DNA of 64,000 nucleotides from Spiroplasma endosymbiont of Diplazon laetatorius (GCF_964019625.1 NZ_OZ026458.1:558001-622000); one strand, 5' to 3'. Positions 6,151 through 45,560 are shown, numbered from the stretch's first letter. Program-made: numbers and translations. The notes: generated from the letters alone by a model not told the origin.

Positions 6151-7001
6151 TATTTATTTTCTTTTTGCATTTTTTTAACTTTACTTGTATAACCTTTTCT
6201 TCCAATAAACGGAAACACAATACTAGTTTTTGAAATGTAGTTTTGATAATCTTTATTATCTTTAAGTTTTTTAAATGCATTTCTTTCAAGGATAGGAACT
6301 CCAGAAACAAATAATAATAAACAAATAATATAAATTGGTGATAGTAATCAAAATAAATAATAATAAATTTCATTATTAGAATTATTTTTCATAATGATAT
6401 TTGTTAAAAAAGCTATTGTTAAAAATAATCAAAAAACCATTTCACCAAAATAGTTTGGATGACGTGATATTTTTCAAAGACCTGTGTCAATAAAGTCTTT
6501 CTTCTTATTTTTATAAAATTTAGATTTTTGTTCATCCCCTATTGTTTCAAAAATTAATCCAAGTAATGCAATTAAAATAAATGCATAGCTAATATAATTT
6601 TTATTATCAAAGTATTGTTCTGGAATTGTTAAAGCAAAACATGCTGGTAGAACAATCAAGAAAACAGAAACTCCTTGTAGAACTCAAAATCCTAAAAATT
6701 TAAAAAATGAATTTCTAATGTTGTCAAATCTTTTATCATGTTTAATTTTTATTATTCTTTTGAATAAATAAGAACCCAAACGAATTGATCATAAAACAAC
6801 AAGTGAATAAATTAATATTTGTATGATTGAAAAATTTTGTTTTCAAGCAAAAATAATTGTAGTTGATATAAGGAATGTTAAAGCATAAGTTATATCTGTA
6901 AATACATCTGATTTAAAAATGAATGCTATAACAAAGAAAAATAAATTTAAAACAATACATAATGCAAATAAGTACGCTATAAAAATATAATTAATATCCA
7001 T
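6150..7001 (-). CDS. DUF1295 / steroid 5-alpha-reductase-like membrane protein
   Basis: A 283-residue polytopic membrane protein with about seven hydrophobic segments. Near residue 190 it has WKISRHPNYFGEMVFW, the R-H-P-N-Y-x-G-E signature of the DUF1295, steroid-reductase and isoprenylcysteine-methyltransferase superfamily, where it contacts the cofactor. The substrate is unknown. An AAAAGGAG ribosome site precedes the ATG at 7001. The gene is convergent with degV, and its stop falls in the degV terminator. Six or more TGA codons are Trp. Confidence 0.8.
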
Positions 7002-7064
7002 AATAATCTCCTTTTATAGAATTTATTATATATATAAATTTAACTTTTATATTTTATAAAAAAT

Positions 7065-7103
7065 AAAAACCTCTTTTACTTTTAAAAGTAATAGAGGTTT
7101 TTT
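7065..7103. terminator. bidirectional terminator
   Basis: AAAAACCTCT (7065-7074) pairs with AGAGGTTTTT (7093-7102), with an inner TTACTTTTAAAAGTAA helix. On the minus strand it lies about 60 bases past the 7166-9241 lipoprotein stop. Confidence 0.75.
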
Positions 7104-30811: not shown

Positions 30812-31648
30812 ATGAAAAACAAAGTGTGATTTATAACTGGAGCCAGTCAAGGTTTTGGTTTAATTTTTGTTAAAAAACTACTAGAACAAGGACATTGTGT
30901 TGTTGCTACAAGTAGAAGTCCTGAAAAAATAGTTGAACAAGTCGGGGAAAATGATTGCTTAATGGCAATCAAAGTTGATTTATCTAATCAAAAAGAATTA
31001 GATGAAGCAATGAAGCTTTGTGTTGATAAGTTCGGATCAATTGATATCTTATTAAACAATGCAGGATATGGACAACTTTGAACTTTTGAAGAAACAACTG
31101 AAGAAGAAATAAGAAAATGTTTTGAAGTTAACTTCTTTGGTACATTAAACGCTACTCGCGCTGCATTACCATATATGAGAAAACAACAATATGGACATAT
31201 CTTTACTACTTCATCAGTTTGAGGATATGTTGGAGACCCTTACATTTCAACTTATGCAGCTGTAAAATTTGCAACTGATGGTTGAACTGAAGCTTTAAGT
31301 CATGAACTTTTAGGTTTAAACATTGGAGTTAGTTGTATAAAACCTGGTGGTTTTAGAACAAACTTCTTAGAATCTACTTCAATGGTAACTGGAGAAGATA
31401 AAATTTCAGATTACAAAGAAGCAAGAGACAAATACTTTGATGGATTGGCTAAATTCAACAAACAACAAGACGGAGATCCAGAAAAATATTGTGACTTTAT
31501 TATTAACTTAACTAATAAAGATAGCAAACCTCCATTACACATCTTTACAGGTAGAGATGCTTACAAAAAAGCAGAAGATAAAATCGCTTCTGTAAGAAAA
31601 GATATGGAAGAACTTCAACAAGAAGCTACAAATTTACACGTACAATAA
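30812..31648 (+). CDS. short-chain dehydrogenase/reductase (SDR), complete active site
   Basis: A 278-residue classical SDR. It has the NAD(P)-binding TGASQGFG near the N terminus, NNAG near residue 90, Ser in TTSSVWG and the catalytic Tyr-x3-Lys in STYAAVKFA. It reduces or oxidises a carbonyl/alcohol; the substrate is unknown. AGAGGTG precedes the ATG. It is a paralogue of the gene at 33456-34286, sharing KNxVWFITGASQG at the start and EEATNLHV or QEATNLHV at the end. Five TGA-Trp codons. Ends at a terminator. Confidence 0.9.
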
Positions 31649-31691: not shown

Positions 31692-32624
31692 TTATTTTTT
31701 AGCACTTCATTTAAATGTAAATGTTGTTATTGTAAAGATTGCTGCAAGTATTAAGATTGCTCCTAAAATTGGTTGTCATGTTGTTGTAAAGTCTTGACCA
31801 ATTAATTTGTCTGGAGATAAAATTCCATTTTCTTCCATTTTTTGTGTGTAGTGTTTATTGAATGGAGCATCTCATCCCCCTTTACCTCAGCCTCTTGTTG
31901 CATATAAAAATAGGAATACTCCATATTTATGAGGAATAAAGTAGGTCATGATAATCATTCCCTTGCTTGTTTCAAATATTTCTGGAGGTAACATAATACC
32001 TGACAAGAATATACTAAAGAAGTAAACCATCATTATAACACCTTGACTTGATCCCGATGAACTAAACAGCCCACCAAACATTGTTGCAAGTGCAATTGAA
32101 GTTAAAGTAATTAAAATCATCGCCAATAAGAAATAACCTCAATTAATTTTTCCCATCAATTGAATTAGAGTAGGGTCATTGCCTCCACTTGATGCATTCA
32201 GAATTTCTGAAAAAATAATATTAAATATCATTAGTATAAAGAATGAAACTATTCCTGCAGTTAGATAAACTAATCATAAAGCTGCAATAAACACACTCTT
32301 TCTGATACCAGTTATATCAATTCTCTTTAAAAATACTGAGTTTTTTCACTCAACAACAGCTGGTGTTAAAAGTGTTAAACATGTCATTGATGGCAATAAA
32401 GTATATGAAAAAAGAATTGCATATTTTTCAGTATCCCCAACTTGATTATATTTACTTCCCATAATAAAGAAGAACATTATGTTAAAAAATATTGGAACAA
32501 TTAACATAAACACTATTGATTTAGGTTCTTTTATAAATGATTTAAATAACAATAAAGATAAGTTATTGAAAATACTGATTTGTTTTTTTGCTTCAAATTT
32601 AGTTTGTTTTTCAACTTTATTCAT
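31692..32624 (-). CDS. ABC-2 type transporter permease
   Basis: A 310-residue membrane protein with six hydrophobic segments in the ABC-2 pattern: one near residue 38-58, then a cluster from about 80 to 240 and one near the C terminus. It is the membrane half of an exporter with the ATPase encoded just upstream. Its ATG overlaps the ATPase stop by one base. The substrate is not shown. Several TGA codons are Trp. Confidence 0.85.
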
Positions 32625-33328
32625 TATTTGTCTTCTCCTTTAAAAAATTTATTCATAAGTTCTCTTACAGACTTATGTTTTTTAATTGTATTTTCAACTG
32701 AGTCATCGTATCAAACTTTGCTATCTTTGATAATAACAAGTCTGTCACACATTTCTTCCACTTCTTCTGGGTGGTGAGAAACTAATAATAATGTTTGTTT
32801 AAATTCTTTTGTATTTTTTTTGAAAAAATCAATGATCTTGAACTGTAATTCCATATCAAGTCCTGTTGTAAGCTCATCTAAAATAATGATTTTTGGATTA
32901 TTCATGATTGAAATCATAGCGTTAAATCTTTGTCTTTGACCACCACTTAATTTTTTAAGTGGTCTGTTGATGAATTCATCTATTTCAAAGACTTTTTTTA
33001 ACTTCTCTTCTCATTCTTTTGTAAATTTCGGATAAACTGATTTGTAGAAATCCAACATATTTTGTGCAGTTATCCCTGTAGGTCAACTACCTTCTTGTAG
33101 TTGAATCCCTATTTCTTGTTTAATATTGTTATTTAAGTTAATTACAATTTCACCTGAATCAGGTTTATTGAATTGAGCTATCATTTCAACTAATGTTGTT
33201 TTACCACATCCATTAGCTCCCATTAAAGCTATTCGTTGACCTTCGTTTATTGATAAACTAAAGTCTTTAAAGATAATTTTTTTGCCAAACGATTTTGAAA
33301 TATTTTTTACGTCAATGATTGTTTGCAT
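32624..33328 (-). CDS. ABC transporter ATP-binding protein
   Basis: A 234-residue ATPase with Walker A GANGCGKTT near residue 38, signature LSGGQRQR near 133, and Walker B IIILDE followed by LTTGLD. The Pro normally found after DE in this protein class is Leu here. The H-loop His is present in LLVSHH. ATG at 33328 is chosen because AAGGAG precedes it; the upstream in-frame start has none. It forms an exporter with the permease. Confidence 0.9.
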
Positions 33329-33455: not shown

Positions 33456-34286
33456 ATGAAAAACAACGTTTGATTTATAACTGGAGCAAGCCAAGGACTT
33501 GGTTTTGAATTAGTAAAAAAACTAGTTGAGCAAGGTTTTAAAGTTGCAGCAACTAGTAGAACACCAGAAAAGATTTTAAAAACAATCAAAAGCGATAACT
33601 TATTAGCTTTAAAAGCAGATGTAACTGTACAAAGCGAAATGGACAAAGCAGTTAAAGAAACTGTTGATAAATTTGGTCAATTAGATGTTTTAGTTACAAA
33701 TGCAGCTTACACAAGACTTTGAACATTTGAAGAATCAAGTGAAGAAGATATAAGAAAAAGTATGGATGTTAACTTTTATGGAGCAATCAACACAGTGAGA
33801 GCTGCTCTTCCCTACTTTAGAGAACAAAAAAGTGGTCATATCTTTATAACTTCAGCTAACTGAGGTTATGCAGGTTTCCCTTATTCAACAGTATTTGGAG
33901 CACCAAAATTTGCTCTTGATGGTTGAGCAGAAAGTGTTAGTCATGAATTAAAACCTTTAGGAATAACAATTTCTAGTTTAAAAAATGGAGGATTTAGAAG
34001 TGACTTCTTTAGAAAAGAAATCATGTCAGGAAAAGGTCAATTTAAAGAATATAAATTTGGAAGAGATCAATGATTTGATACTTTAAAAGGCTTTGATAAA
34101 AAACAAGATGGAGATCCAGTTAGATATGCTGATTTCTTAATTGAATTATCTAAAAAAGATAATTTACCTTTACATATATTCCCAGGAAGAGATTCAAATC
34201 ACTTTGCAGAAGTAAAAATTGGTAGATTAACAGCTGATATGGAAGCAATTAAAGAGGAAGCTACAAATTTACACGTAGAAGATTAA
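33456..34286 (+). CDS. SDR-family protein lacking the catalytic Tyr
   Basis: A 276-residue paralogue of the SDR at 30812. The cofactor motif TGASQGLG is intact, but NNAG is replaced by TNAA, and where the sister has STYAAVK this one has STVFGAPK, so the catalytic Tyr position is Phe while Lys remains. Ser is kept in ITSANWG. It probably binds NAD(P) but is unlikely to work as a standard SDR; a binding or regulatory role, or a shifted active site, is possible. AAAGGGG precedes the ATG. Divergent from the ABC exporter genes, with a terminator after it. Confidence 0.85.
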
Positions 34287-40275: not shown

Positions 40276-40713
40276 TTATAATACATTTCAATATTCTTTA
40301 ATTCTTTGATTGATTGTTTCAATTACACTTTGATCCTTTATTCCAAATTCTTTAAGAGTTTCTATAGCTTTATCCATTTTAACATTTTGAATAACTTCTT
40401 CTCTTCTTATACCCTTAACGTCTTCAACTAAATTTTCCCCTTTATCAAATTTATAAATTTCTATCAATACTTCATTCCTTTTAGTTCATCAATCATATCC
40501 AGCAGCTTCTGGTTCCCCATCTTTTATTGTATTAATTAAATGTTCTACTGATTTTTGTATACTAAACAAATAATTAATTTTTTCAATTCTTTTTTCTTTG
40601 CTCATTTTTTCAGCATCTTCTCCAGGAGTGGAAATTACCCTGCAACTTGTAGATGCAACACTTACATTTGTTATTAATCCAAAAACACTTAATAAACTAA
40701 TTATTTTTTTCAT
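40276..40713 (-). CDS. lipoprotein downstream of ABC cassette 1
   Basis: A 145-residue lipoprotein: MKKIISLLSVFGLITNVSVA then STSC (Cys24). The mature part is helical and charged. Three TGA-Trp codons. AAGGAG precedes the ATG, just after a 13-bp hairpin that also contains the stop of the ABC-2 permease upstream, so it may be the last gene of the cassette, with expression tuned by the hairpin. Confidence 0.8.
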
Positions 40714-40731
40714 TTTTTTCTCCTTCTTAAC

Positions 40732-40769
40732 GTTTAAATCTTTGTAAATATTTTTGCAAAGATTTAAAC
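40732..40769. other. 13-bp hairpin at an operon junction
   Basis: GTTTAAATCTTTG (40732-40744) pairs perfectly with CAAAGATTTAAAC (40757-40769). It includes the permease stop codon and lies just upstream of the lipoprotein ribosome site. No T-run follows on the minus strand, so processing or attenuation is more likely than simple termination. Confidence 0.55.
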
Positions 40770-41741
40770 AAATAAATCAATTTTCTTAATATAAATTGAA
40801 GTTAAATAAATAACTGCAGTTGAGGATCCTAGATAAATTATAGGAATAAAGATATTTAGATAGATGTTATCTTTAATAAAATATTCATATATAGTTCAGA
40901 AATATTTATATTCATCTTTTCATTTATTTTCACTAAATTCATTTCCAAAATTTAAAGGATTCATAATTAATTTATCTAATGTTAAAAATTCAACAGCTGC
41001 AAATCCTTTAAAAGGATTGTTGGGTGTATTTCCCCCGCCGCTTTTATAAAAGTAATACAATAATCACATTGTAAAAATATATATAATGATTGCTGTAAAA
41101 ATTAATATACTTATAAATGAAGGTTTTTTTACCAAAGTCAAACCAATCATTATAAATATTGTTGTTAAAAATATATTAAAAATTATAAATTGTAAACAAT
41201 ATCAGAATAATCTTAAAAAATATTTGTTTGCATCTTGAGCAGTAGAACAAAATATCAAAGTAACCATAGATACTGAAGATGTTAAAATTATGTTTATTAT
41301 AATTATTGATACAGCTTTCATTAAAAATATTTTTTGTTTAGAAATGGGCAAAGTTAATCATGTAACAATTTTCCCCTCTTTTATTTCTGAAGTGAAAAAT
41401 TTATTAATAAAGTAAGCTGTTGCAATACTTAAAAATACTGTTGTGGGTCCAATAAATAATATTTCTGAAATTCACTTTGAATAATAATTTTCTATATGTT
41501 CTCTGTATTGAAAAGGTAGTTCACTAGAACTACTATATCACATTTCAATTTTTCCAATATATGGTCCACCAAAATGTAAAGAAAATGAATTACCCTCAAT
41601 ATTTGAAAACATTCCAACAGATAACAATGAAATTGTATATAGTGTTAATATCGTTAAAAAATAAGTTAATGGTTTTCAATACATCCTTAAATGAGACAAG
41701 ATAATTTTGTTGTCGTTTTTCATTTTTATTAAAAAATTCAT
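40764..41741 (-). CDS. ABC-2 type permease, cassette 1
   Basis: A 325-residue membrane protein with six hydrophobic segments and a long extracellular loop after the first, as in BcrB/NatB-like exporters. The ATG at 41741 comes one base after the ATPase stop (TAATATG). It resembles the cassette-2 permease in layout: long first loop, then ITTWLTLPIS-like versus SIWMSFSFS-like cytoplasmic turns. Several TGA codons are Trp. Substrate unknown, possibly the neighbouring secreted protein or a peptide. Confidence 0.85.
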
Positions 41742-41742
41742 A

Positions 41743-42435
41743 TTATTTATAGAGACTTAAAAAGTCTTTCTCCATATCTTCTACATTATATTCACTGATT
41801 TTTATTTCTTTAATTATTTCACCATTTTTTAAAAAACCAATTTCATCACATAATTTTTTAATTTCTTCAAATATATGTGAACACATTAAAACTGTTGTTC
41901 CTAAATTTATTAAATATTTAATTTCTTCATTAAAAATATTTTGCATTAAAGGATCTAAACCACTAGTTGGTTCATCTAAAATTAAAATTTTTGGTTTATT
42001 TATTAACGCAGAAACTATAGCAACTTTTTGCTTTGTTCCTTTTGACATATTTTTTATTTTAGTTTTTAAATCATTTTCTAAATTAAATTTAATTAATAAT
42101 TCTTCAAAATATTTGTTTTGATCGATGTTTTTAAAACTTTTAATAAAGTCTAAATATTCTTTTCCTGTTAGCTCATCAAATAAAATGACTTCACCTGCAA
42201 CATAACCCACATCTTGCATTAGTACTTGAGAGTTATTTCAAGGGTTAATTCCATTTAATGTTATTTCTCCAAAAGATGGTTTTATAAATCCCATAATTTG
42301 CCTAATTAATGTTGTTTTACCTGCACCATTTGGTCCAAGTATTCCATAAATACCTTTTTCTTTTATATCTATTGTAATATTTCTATTAATTTCATTATTT
42401 CCAATTTTTTTACTAACTTTATTTACTTTTATCAT
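41743..42435 (-). CDS. ABC ATPase, cassette 1 (BcrA/CcmA-like)
   Basis: A 230-residue ATPase: Walker A GPNGAGKTT near residue 36, signature MSKGTKQK and Walker B LILDEPTSGLD. The signature with SKG in place of SGG is typical of BcrA/NatA-like exporters. Closely similar to the cassette-2 ATPase (LSKGNKQK). It starts 2 bases after the stop of the secreted-protein gene and is followed at once by its permease. Confidence 0.92.
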
Positions 42436-42436
42436 T

Positions 42437-43126
42437 TTAGTAATTAGGTATGAAATCAATAGATTTTACTTTTCGATAGGTATTTATATATTTTTTTGAT
42501 CCACTTGCATTTTTAAAGCTATATTTTCCATTATGTCTTACAATTAAGTTTCCTGAATCAGATCAAAAAGCTCCAACATTTATAAATGCCCATTTCGCAT
42601 AATTACCTGTTGAATGTTCGAAAACAAATGTTCCAGTTTGCTTTCCAATAAAGCCATAACCAGATCAATGATTACCAGTTATGTTTATACTATTTTGTTG
42701 TTTTTCTTCATTATCTGGTAATATATTGCTTTCAGGACCTTTTACATCTTTTAAAAAGGTAGTAAACTTTAAAGTTCTATCAAAAAAATTATATTCTCCA
42801 CCACTTGAAGCATAAATACCAATCTTTATATCAAATGTTATTTCAACTGATTTATAGTTTTTATAAATATATTCTAAGTCACCTATCTGATTAGAATATG
42901 TGTAAACATTTGTAGCTGTTAAAATTTTTTCACTTTTTGAACTTCACCTAGAATAGTCACCTTCTTTATTTTCAATGTTTGTTTCTTCTCAAATATTTGT
43001 GCTTTTAAATAATTTTGATGAAACTTGTTCATCACTATTTAAAGAATTTATATTTTGACTAGAGTGTGAAAATATAAATGTTGACATAAATAAACTTACA
43101 TTACATATATTTAATAATTTTGTCAT
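42437..43126 (-). CDS. secreted protein 1 of the paired ABC locus
   Basis: A 229-residue protein with a Sec signal (MTKLLNICNVSLFMSTFIFS then HSS) and no lipobox Cys, so it is probably released. The mature part is rich in Ser, Asn, Tyr, Trp and Gly and looks beta-rich; eight TGA codons are read as Trp. The C-terminal end SGSKKYINTYRKVKSIDF resembles the end of secreted protein 2 (AGSTHQCRTSSEINKIDF). AGAAGGAG precedes the ATG. Directly followed by its ABC ATPase (2-base gap). Bacteriocin-like, adhesin-like or toxin roles are all possible; nothing proves one. Confidence 0.75.
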
Positions 43127-43238
43127 AATAGTCTCCTTCTAATTAGCATAAAATTTTTAATAATTTATCTATTTAAAAGTACCTATGCTTGTGATTATAG
43201 CATAATTTTTTTTAACAATTATTTTTACCCAAGTTCTT

Positions 43239-43266
43239 AAAAAATCATATATAAATATGATTTTTT
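43239..43266. terminator. terminator after secreted protein 2
   Basis: AAAAAATCATAT (43239-43250) pairs with ATATGATTTTTT (43255-43266) around a 4-base loop. Confidence 0.85.
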
Positions 43267-43281
43267 AAAATTTATTTAGTT

Positions 43282-43839
43282 CTAACCTTTGAAATCAATC
43301 TTATTAATTTCAGAAGAGGTTCTACATTGATGTGTTGATCCAGCTGTTCTTGCATAAATGTATGAAACCAAAGTAATTCCTACAATTGCATTTACTGTAT
43401 CGTATTTTGCTGTAACTTTTAAAGTTATAGAAGATGTTTGATGTCCTCAACCTTTTCATGCATCATGTTGTTTATGAAATTTTCAAACTCTAATAGTAGA
43501 ATCTGATAAGTCCTCATTTTTTTGTAATTGTATTCTATTCATATTTAGTGGATCTTTATAAGTTCCAAAATCAAAATTACCTATAGCTGTTATTTCATTT
43601 CTTTTTGATAAAATAGTTTCTCACTCTAAGGAACTAGCTGATCAAGTTTCTGTTTCTGTATCTTCAACATCATGAGTTCCTGCTGGAGGAGTATTAATAT
43701 TATGTTTTAAAAACACTTTTTCTCATACACCATCAACCAAATAAGGTTGAATTGTATTTTCATTTATAGAACTAGAGGTTGTTCCTAAAAACGCAGAACC
43801 AAATAAAGATAATAAATTTAATTTTAAAAAATTTTTCAT
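43282..43839 (-). CDS. secreted protein 2 of the paired ABC locus
   Basis: A 185-residue protein with a signal peptide (MKNFLKLNLLSLFGSAFLG then TTSSS) and no lipobox. Six TGA-Trp codons. The mature part is rich in Thr, Ser, Trp and His. Its last 30 residues align with secreted protein 1 (YARTAGSTHQCRTSSEINKI, then DF), suggesting paralogues with divergent middles. GAAAGGAAAA precedes the ATG. It lies downstream of cassette-2 permease (52-base gap) and ends at a terminator, so each secreted protein adjoins one ABC pair. Confidence 0.75.
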
Positions 43840-43891
43840 AAATTTTCCTTTCTTTTAATTCGTTTAAAAAAATTAATCAAAAATTTAGATT

Positions 43892-44839
43892 CTATATTTT
43901 TATATCTTTATTTTTGAAAATACGAATTGAGAAATAATTTATCACTACAATCGATATCATTAATAAAATTAAAACTGTACTTTTAATTGCTCAAAGCACT
44001 TCTTTTAAAGTGGCTTGTTTAATAGTTACTTTATATTTACCATACTCATATTCTTCAATAAGATTGACATTTTCTGAACCAAAATTCATAACAGGTAACA
44101 ATAATGATTGAGGAGATATAAATTTAACATATTTCAACATTTTTATAGTTCCATCTGAAAGATCATAAACCAGATTTAAAATTCAAGTAGATAAAATTCA
44201 GAAAATAAATAATCCAAACACAACATTTAATAAAACACTCTTTTGATTAAACAAAATCGAGAAAATTATTAAAATAGAAACTAATAAAATTATAAATGTA
44301 ATAAATTGTAAAGAATACATAAACACAAATCCAATATATTGTTTTGAATCTTGTGCGAATGATGAAAATATAATTATTAAAATAAATGAAAAAGAGAAAA
44401 TTATTAGATTTATTATAAAAATTGTTAAAATTTTAGAAAAAATAACTTTAAATCTCGAAAAACTAAAACTCATTCAAATAGAGATTTGACCTTCATTTAA
44501 CTCTTTAATAATTATTTTATTAATAAGGTAAATATTTGCAATTAGAAAAATTGTAATTCCTGGAACACTATATATAGCTGTAGATAGAGAACTATATATA
44601 CTCCATGATATTATCCCATATGATCCATGACTACCATGTCCATTGTCAATTTCAGCATGTATTGAAGTTGGAGCAATATAAGGGAATTTTACAAAATCAT
44701 AATATTTAATTAATCCCATGCTAAGTAAGGCAAGCGTTACTAAAAAATAAAACACTGTAAAAAATATAATCATCGCTTTATTAATTGATAAGTGATTTCA
44801 TATAAGTTTATTTTTAACATTAAAATTAATTTTATTCAT
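43892..44839 (-). CDS. ABC-2 type permease, cassette 2
   Basis: A 315-residue membrane protein with six hydrophobic segments; the first extracellular loop carries a Gly/His-rich stretch (EIDNGHGSHGSYG). Its ATG overlaps the end of the ATPase gene by 8 bases, giving translational coupling. Several TGA-Trp codons. Sister of the cassette-1 permease by layout. Confidence 0.85.
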
Positions 44840-45560
44840 AATTAAACACCATTTCCTCTATTTGATTATTTGAAACCTTAAATGTTTCATTGAATTTTTT
44901 TTCTAAATCAATTTTGGGGCCTTCAACTAAATTAATAACTTCAACCATTTTTCCTTCTTTTAAAAGAACTACTCTATCACAAAGCTTTTCTATTTCTTGA
45001 AATATATGAGAACACAAGATTATTGTTGTTCCCTGTTTTTTTAGTTCAAGCATTAAAATGTTAAATTTGTTTTGCATAATTGGATCTAAACCACTAGTTG
45101 GTTCATCTAAAATTAAAATTTTTGGTTTTGACATAAGCGAACAAATAATAGAAACCTTTTGTTTATTACCTTTAGATAAAAGTTTAATCTTTTTATTTAA
45201 ATCTAGTTCAAAAAGCTTTATTAAGTTACTTAAAAAAGAATCATCTACATTTTCATTAAGATTTTTATAAATTTTAATGAAATCTTTAACTTTCATATTT
45301 TCATATAATTTTATTTCACCAGCGATAAATCCAACACTATTCATAACTTTTTCTGCTTCTAATCACGGATTAAAACCATTAATGATAATGTCTCCTTTTG
45401 TTGATTTAATAAAACCCATTATTTGACTTATTAATGTTGTTTTACCAGCACCATTTGGTCCAAGAACACCAAATATTTCGCCTTTTTCAATTGTTAATGT
45501 TATATCTTCATTAGCAAGATAACTTCCATATATTTTTGAAATATTATTTATTTTAATCAT
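44832..45560 (-). CDS. ABC ATPase, cassette 2 (BcrA/CcmA-like)
   Basis: A 242-residue ATPase: Walker A GPNGAGKTT, signature LSKGNKQK, Walker B LILDEPTSGLD, and CSHIFQEIEKLCD as the H-loop region. One TGA-Trp. AAGGAAG precedes the ATG at 45560. It is the first gene of the cassette; the 190 bases upstream hold a long TTTTACATAAAAA hairpin near 45692-45721 that may be regulatory. Confidence 0.92.

What the first reader, a model, noticed from the sequence alone, without database searches (positions are those of the whole stretch)
40276..45560. Two parallel cassettes, each an ABC ATPase, ABC-2 permease and secreted protein
Two BcrA-like ATPases with near-identical motifs (GPNGAGKTT, SKG signatures, LILDEPTSGLD), two layout-matched permeases and two non-lipidated secreted proteins that share a similar C-terminal tail lie side by side. 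This looks like a duplicated secretion or immunity unit with diverged cargo, for example bacteriocin-like proteins and self-protection exporters. The secreted proteins belong to no family I recognise.
Basis: partly seen in the sequence, partly recalled or inferred. Interest (0 to 1): 0.7.

Follow-up and report, generated by a model that had tools for sequence, protein, structure and literature searches.

The report
Secreted proteins paired with protective transporters
A Spiroplasma-type bacterium carries two unrelated small secreted proteins, each beside its own ABC pump, and the same kind of pairing recurs across many Spiroplasma-type genomes, which suggests an uncharacterised family of secreted toxins with matching self-protection pumps, although no activity has been shown.

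Summary
The genes are real (code 4). On the minus strand: ABC1-permease1-sec1, a strong hairpin, then sec2-ABC2-permease2-lipoprotein. The ATPases are 51% identical and the permeases 30%. The two secreted proteins are not detectably related (BLASTP E 0.14; profile-profile probability 0.3%), so the "shared tail" is unproven. A tree puts ABC1 and ABC2 with different species, so this is not a recent tandem duplication.

The proposed link to transporters holds up. Sec1 relatives (family F1) occur at 20 loci in 17 of 320 genomes of the order. At 17 of the 20, an ABC ATPase gene lies within 2.5 kb (2.7 expected). Sec2 relatives (family F2) occur in 4 genomes, all in ABC clusters. Both families pair with two different transporter types, in varying gene order, and some loci carry extra or broken cargo copies. 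Transporters of the same type are common without cargo. The permease profile matches staphylococcal PmtD, of a toxin-exporting and self-protecting transporter.

Best reading: Sec-exported antagonistic proteins whose producers are protected by dedicated ABC-2 pumps. Activity, target and direction of transport are untested. Neither cargo family matches Pfam, NCBIfam or the PDB, and the fold prediction failed. New variant of a known kind (toxin plus ABC self-protection).

The parts
44832..45560 (-). ABC1: BcrA/DrrA-like ABC ATPase, 242 aa
   Evidence: ORF; ABC_tran E 6e-26; best NCBIfam drrA 170 bits (cut-off 312); tree
43892..44839 (-). Permease 1: ABC-2 type, 315 aa, overlaps ABC1 by 8 nt
   Evidence: ABC2_membrane_2 E 4e-7; family profile matches PmtD in the PDB, E 2e-7
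43282..43839 (-). Sec1: secreted protein of family F1, 185 aa, signal-peptide-like N-terminus
   Evidence: ORF; relatives in 17 of 320 genomes; no Pfam, NCBIfam or PDB match
43235..43270 (-). Strong A/T-rich hairpin after sec1, probable terminator separating the two transcription units
   Evidence: -12.8 kcal/mol, z -5.1; not found by the terminator scan, which requires G-C pairs
43194..43202 (-). TGCTATAAT, possible extended -10 promoter element for the second unit
   Evidence: read by eye in the sequence; the promoter scan found no excess over shuffles; inferred only
42437..43126 (-). Sec2: secreted protein of family F2, 229 aa, signal-peptide-like N-terminus
   Evidence: ORF; relatives in 3 other genomes; no Pfam, NCBIfam or PDB match
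41743..42435 (-). ABC2: BcrA/DrrA-like ABC ATPase, 230 aa; ATG 1 nt after the sec2 stop
   Evidence: tree
40764..41741 (-). Permease 2: ABC-2 type, 325 aa
   Evidence: 30% identity to permease 1; ABC2_membrane_2 E 4e-4, below cut-off; weak PmtD match E 2e-5
40733..40768 (-). Hairpin between permease 2 and the lipoprotein gene
   Evidence: -9.7 kcal/mol, z -6.5
40276..40713 (-). LP: small lipoprotein, 145 aa, lipobox STSC; doubtful member of the unit
   Evidence: LP_plasma 19.8 bits (cut-off 24); relatives lie on a separate 11-kb contig in G005, away from the cassette

Best explanation
Each unit pairs a Sec-exported protein of about 160-205 mature residues with an ABC-2 transporter that protects the cell making it. 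Sec1 (F1) and sec2 (F2) leave through the general secretory pathway and are thought to act on the membrane or surface of competing bacteria, most likely other wall-less relatives. The ATPase and permease pump the protein off the producer's own membrane, as PmtCD, LanFEG and LugGH are thought to do for their toxins. Shown here: the gene structure, the recurrent cargo-transporter linkage, the interchange of cargo families and transporter types, and the PmtD-like permease profile. Inferred: export by Sec, antagonistic activity, target, and the protective role of the pump.
For: F1 has an ABC ATPase within 2.5 kb at 17 of 20 loci, 2.7 expected if any ABC ATPase counts, P 8e-13. Four marginal F1 hits from a whole-genome search that knew nothing of neighbours (E 2e-5 to 5e-9) all lay near an ABC gene when read afterwards. 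F2: 4 of 4 genomes. F1 and F2 each occur with two transporter types, A (315-aa permease) and B (about 550-aa permease), and F1 occurs in tandem, convergent or divergent orientation to its ABC genes, so the link outlasts rearrangement. The dependence is one-sided: type A transporters are common without cargo, while cargo without an ATPase nearby is rare (3 of 20). One G086 locus has three cargo copies around one transporter. In G005 the sec2 relative is broken while ABC2 and permease 2 are intact. The permease profile's best PDB match is PmtD, E 2e-7; PmtAB/PmtCD secrete phenol-soluble modulins and give self-resistance (PMC7927808). Signal-peptide-like N-termini argue against the ABC transporter being the sole exporter.
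Against: No activity, structure or expression data. The sec1 model is unusable (mean pLDDT 39). Two of the three exceptions (G067) have intact-looking F1 genes with no ABC gene nearby. The loci are not all independent: G050 and G052 share synteny. The one-sided linkage would also be seen if the pump were needed for export. Signal peptides were judged by a simple hydropathy rule, not a trained predictor. ABC-2 transporters of this type have many other roles.
Confidence: 0.5

Rival explanations
1. The ABC-2 transporter is the dedicated exporter or late-stage releaser of the linked protein, which acts on the insect or other host (a colonisation factor or effector) and not on bacteria.
For: Cargo rarely occurs without an ABC gene; spiroplasmas live in arthropods; Pmt also exports its toxins (PMC7927808).
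Against: Both cargo families begin with signal-peptide-like segments that would already send them through Sec. Orphan transporters are common and in G005 the transporter outlives the cargo, which an exporter of one dedicated cargo would not predict.
Confidence: 0.22
2. The transporters protect against host antimicrobial peptides or foreign bacteriocins, and the secreted proteins are decoys or sensors that bind such peptides.
For: BcrA/LanF-like ATPases and a PmtD-like permease; Pmt also gives resistance to other cationic peptides (PMC7927808); transporters are often present without cargo.
Against: A decoy or sensor would be expected to be conserved, but the cargo is patchy (17 of 320 and 4 of 320 genomes), of several unrelated families, and often broken.
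Confidence: 0.13
3. The two units are ordinary paralogous ABC-2 drug or lipid transporters that happen to lie beside fast-evolving secreted proteins, with no functional link.
For: These genomes hold about 13-47 ABC ATPases each, and type A transporters are frequent without cargo.
Against: 17 of 20 observed against 2.7 expected; linkage kept across changed orientation and two transporter types; ABC2 starts 1 nt after the sec2 stop.
Confidence: 0.1

Closest known systems
PmtABCD, phenol-soluble modulin exporter of staphylococci
   Same: ABC-2 architecture; permease family profile matches PmtD in the PDB (E 2e-7); two ATPase-permease pairs side by side; toxin handling with self-resistance (PMC7927808).
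   Different: Far below the NCBIfam cut-offs for PmtA, PmtC and PmtD; permeases here are longer, with about 40 residues between the first two predicted membrane segments; PSMs are short leaderless peptides (own knowledge), while these cargos are 160-205 aa with signal-peptide-like N-termini.
Lactococcin 972 cluster (lcn972 plus orf2-orf3, a putative immunity ABC transporter)
   Same: A structural gene with a putative ABC immunity transporter (PMC4055356).
   Different: No match of any cargo to a lactococcin 972 model in Pfam or NCBIfam; Lcn972 binds the cell-wall precursor lipid II (PMC4055356), which wall-less mollicutes lack (own knowledge).
LanFEG / BcrAB self-protection transporters
   Same: ATPases score well against the galliderm (lantibiotic protection) and drrA models (153-170 bits).
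   Different: Below the curated cut-offs (about 310 bits); no lantibiotic precursor or modification enzymes seen in the cassette.
LugEF and LugGH of the lugdunin cluster
   Same: Two ABC pairs next to a toxin's genes, sharing release and self-resistance (PMC7927808).
   Different: Lugdunin is a nonribosomal peptide; homology was not tested.

Membership tests
ABC-2 type exporters (BcrA/DrrA-like ATPase plus ABC-2 permease) | ATPase with ABC_tran domain and intact Walker A (GPNGAGKTT) and Walker B (LILDEP) | tested here: met
   both copies
ABC-2 type exporters (BcrA/DrrA-like ATPase plus ABC-2 permease) | Permease of the ABC-2 superfamily | tested here: met
   Permease 1 passes ABC2_membrane_2 (29.9 bits, cut-off 27.2); permease 2 is below it (20.3) but is 30% identical to permease 1
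PmtABCD | Scores above the NCBIfam equivalog cut-offs for PmtA, PmtC or PmtD | tested here: not met
   137 of 350, 117 of 375 and 24 of 220 bits
PmtABCD | Exports and protects against linked amphipathic toxins | not testable with these tools
   needs a transport or sensitivity assay
Lactococcin 972 family | Cargo matches the lactococcin 972 model | tested here: not met
   no match for sec1 or sec2 at E <= 1 nor for F1 or F2 members
Bacteriocin with dedicated immunity | Structural gene linked to a candidate immunity transporter | tested here: met
   F1 17 of 20 loci, F2 4 of 4, beside ABC genes; linkage only
Bacteriocin with dedicated immunity | Kills or inhibits related bacteria, producer protected | not testable with these tools
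   needs a growth-inhibition assay
One family for sec1 and sec2 | Significant sequence or profile similarity | tested here: not met
   E 0.14; hhalign probability 0.3-0.4%, as for reversed controls

The most novel reading that the evidence does not exclude
Spiroplasmas and their relatives carry a polymorphic arsenal of Sec-secreted protein toxins, with at least two and perhaps five or six sequence-unrelated cargo families that swap between two classes of ABC-2 self-protection transporter: a protein-based antagonism system of wall-less bacteria.
Probability: 0.35. Interest if true: 0.72.

Novelty: new variant of a known kind. Interest (0 to 1): 0.52.

Why it matters
Protein weapons of wall-less bacteria are little known; searches of the held open-access papers found nothing describing such a system in Spiroplasma. 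If the reading is right, it offers defined toxin-and-protection pairs that could explain competition among arthropod symbionts, and transporters with known partners whose substrates can be tested directly. Even if the proteins act on the host, the linkage defines families of secreted factors with a dedicated transporter.

Tried and rejected
Fold of sec1 (4 sequences): pLDDT 39, pTM 0.37, so no fold search was run. Profile comparison of F1, F2 and four other cargo groups with reversed controls: no significant link, apart from a weak hint between F1 and the L026 pair (E 8e-4). A shared C-terminal strand pattern (83% of 24 cargo proteins against 15% of other ORFs) mostly reflects F1 homology, so it was not taken as evidence. 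Plasmid and viral collections: no match. PADLOC: only generic ATPase matches. Rfam: nothing. The first F1 search over the order gave many false hits to signal peptides alone; it was repeated with mature domains. The lipoprotein was considered as a LanI-like immunity protein and set aside, because its relatives do not travel with the cassette.

Full report
WHAT IS THERE. The window lies in a 979,438-bp mollicute genome read with TGA=Trp. Two relatives named by the tools are Spiroplasma sp. JKS002669 and Spiroplasma sp. AdecLV25b; the others are unnamed, so "Spiroplasma-type" is used here for the group. On the minus strand, 45560 to 40276, the order is ABC1, permease 1, sec1, hairpin, sec2, ABC2, permease 2, hairpin, lipoprotein. 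ABC1 and permease 1 overlap by 8 nt; ABC2 begins 1 nt after the sec2 stop; permease 2 begins 1 nt after ABC2. A terminator-like site of the upstream gene lies at 45753-45734, and the strong hairpin at 43270-43235 (z -5.1) suggests two transcription units. A TGCTATAAT element at 43202-43194 could be the promoter of the second; this is read by eye, and the scan found no excess of promoter-like sites.

ARE THE UNITS DUPLICATES? The ATPases are 51% identical and the permeases 30%. Sec1 and sec2 are not detectably related. In a tree of 37 ATPases, ABC1 groups with genes of G017 and G012 (100/99) and ABC2 with genes of G005 and G011 (99/88); the two clades are sisters (97/83). The transporters therefore most likely diverged before this genome's lineage split from those species. 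Two old units lie side by side; this is not a recent tandem copy. ABC2 travels with F2 in all three genomes of its clade (window, G005, G011), while ABC1's two closest relatives have a different cargo or none.

CARGO FAMILIES. F1 (sec1) was found in 17 of 320 genomes of the order at E <= 1e-4, using mature domains only, plus a C-terminal fragment in G001. In an even sample of 395 genomes of the class, every genome with a match belongs to the window's own family. F2 (sec2) was found in 4 of 320. Neither matches Pfam, NCBIfam or PDB sequences. Conserved F1 features include W-x-G-W-G-H-Q-T-S and Y-I-Y-A-R-T-A-G-S near the C-terminus.

LINKAGE. At 17 of 20 F1 loci an ABC ATPase lies within 2.5 kb. 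Counting every ABC ATPase in each genome (13-47) as a possible neighbour, 2.7 would be expected (P 8e-13). The loci are not fully independent, so P is a guide only; the G036 locus is close to the 2.5-kb limit. The exceptions are two G067 copies between transposase-like ORFs and one G025 copy beside a type B permease alone. Four F1 members found in a search that knew nothing of neighbours (G016, G036, and second copies in G030 and G037) were all near an ABC gene when their surroundings were read. Neighbour transporters are of two types: A, as in the window, and B, with a permease of about 550 aa that barely matches Pfam. F1 and F2 occur with both. Gene order and orientation vary: operon in the window, convergent in G052, divergent in G038, three cargo copies around one transporter in G086.

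DECAY. In G005 the sec2 relative is broken while ABC2 and permease 2 are intact; in G013, G098 and G319 cargo and transporter are both damaged. Of 20 loci chosen by type A permease alone, about four have a small secreted protein beside the transporter, one of them an F1 member, and most have none. So transporters often occur without cargo, and cargo seldom without transporters.

MECHANISM. Signal-peptide-like N-termini imply Sec export (inferred). The type A permease profile has PmtD as its best PDB match, E 2e-7, with NosY a distant second, and the ATPases resemble DrrA and lantibiotic-protection ATPases below the curated cut-offs. PmtAB/PmtCD secrete phenol-soluble modulins and give self-resistance (PMC7927808); the lugdunin cluster uses two ABC transporters for release and resistance (PMC7927808); the lactococcin 972 cluster is one structural gene plus a putative immunity ABC transporter (PMC4055356). 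The best-supported reading is an antagonistic secreted protein with a self-protection pump (0.5). A dedicated exporter of a host-acting protein is the main rival (0.22), then peptide defence with decoys (0.13), then chance neighbourhood (0.1).

LIMITS. No activity was tested. The sec1 fold prediction failed. Signal peptides rest on a hydropathy rule.

Noticed in passing
L026:12434-13636 (-): Pair of related small secreted proteins (39% identical) beside an ABC ATPase and a 475-aa membrane protein; the best non-member hit of the remote F1 profile (E 8e-4), perhaps a distant F1 branch.
   Followed up: partly
L075:3712-4362 (+) and L084:7411-7869 (-): Another small secreted protein family (55% identical) next to type A transporters in two genomes; no detectable similarity to F1 or F2.
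   Followed up: partly
L078:3376-4095 (-): A 239-aa secreted protein between a type B and a type A transporter, without detectable similarity to the others.
   Followed up: partly
L110:3030-3476 and 6612-7097 (+): Relatives of the window's lipoprotein, twice, on an 11,138-bp contig with a ParA-like gene in G005, probably a plasmid.
   Followed up: partly
L065:8550-9170 (-) and L066:6646-7173 (+): Two 92%-identical F1 genes in G067 flanked by transposase-like ORFs, without an ABC gene nearby.
   Followed up: partly
window 31692-33328 (-): A further ABC ATPase and permease pair between two short-chain dehydrogenase-like genes (30812-31648 and 33456-34286).
   Followed up: no
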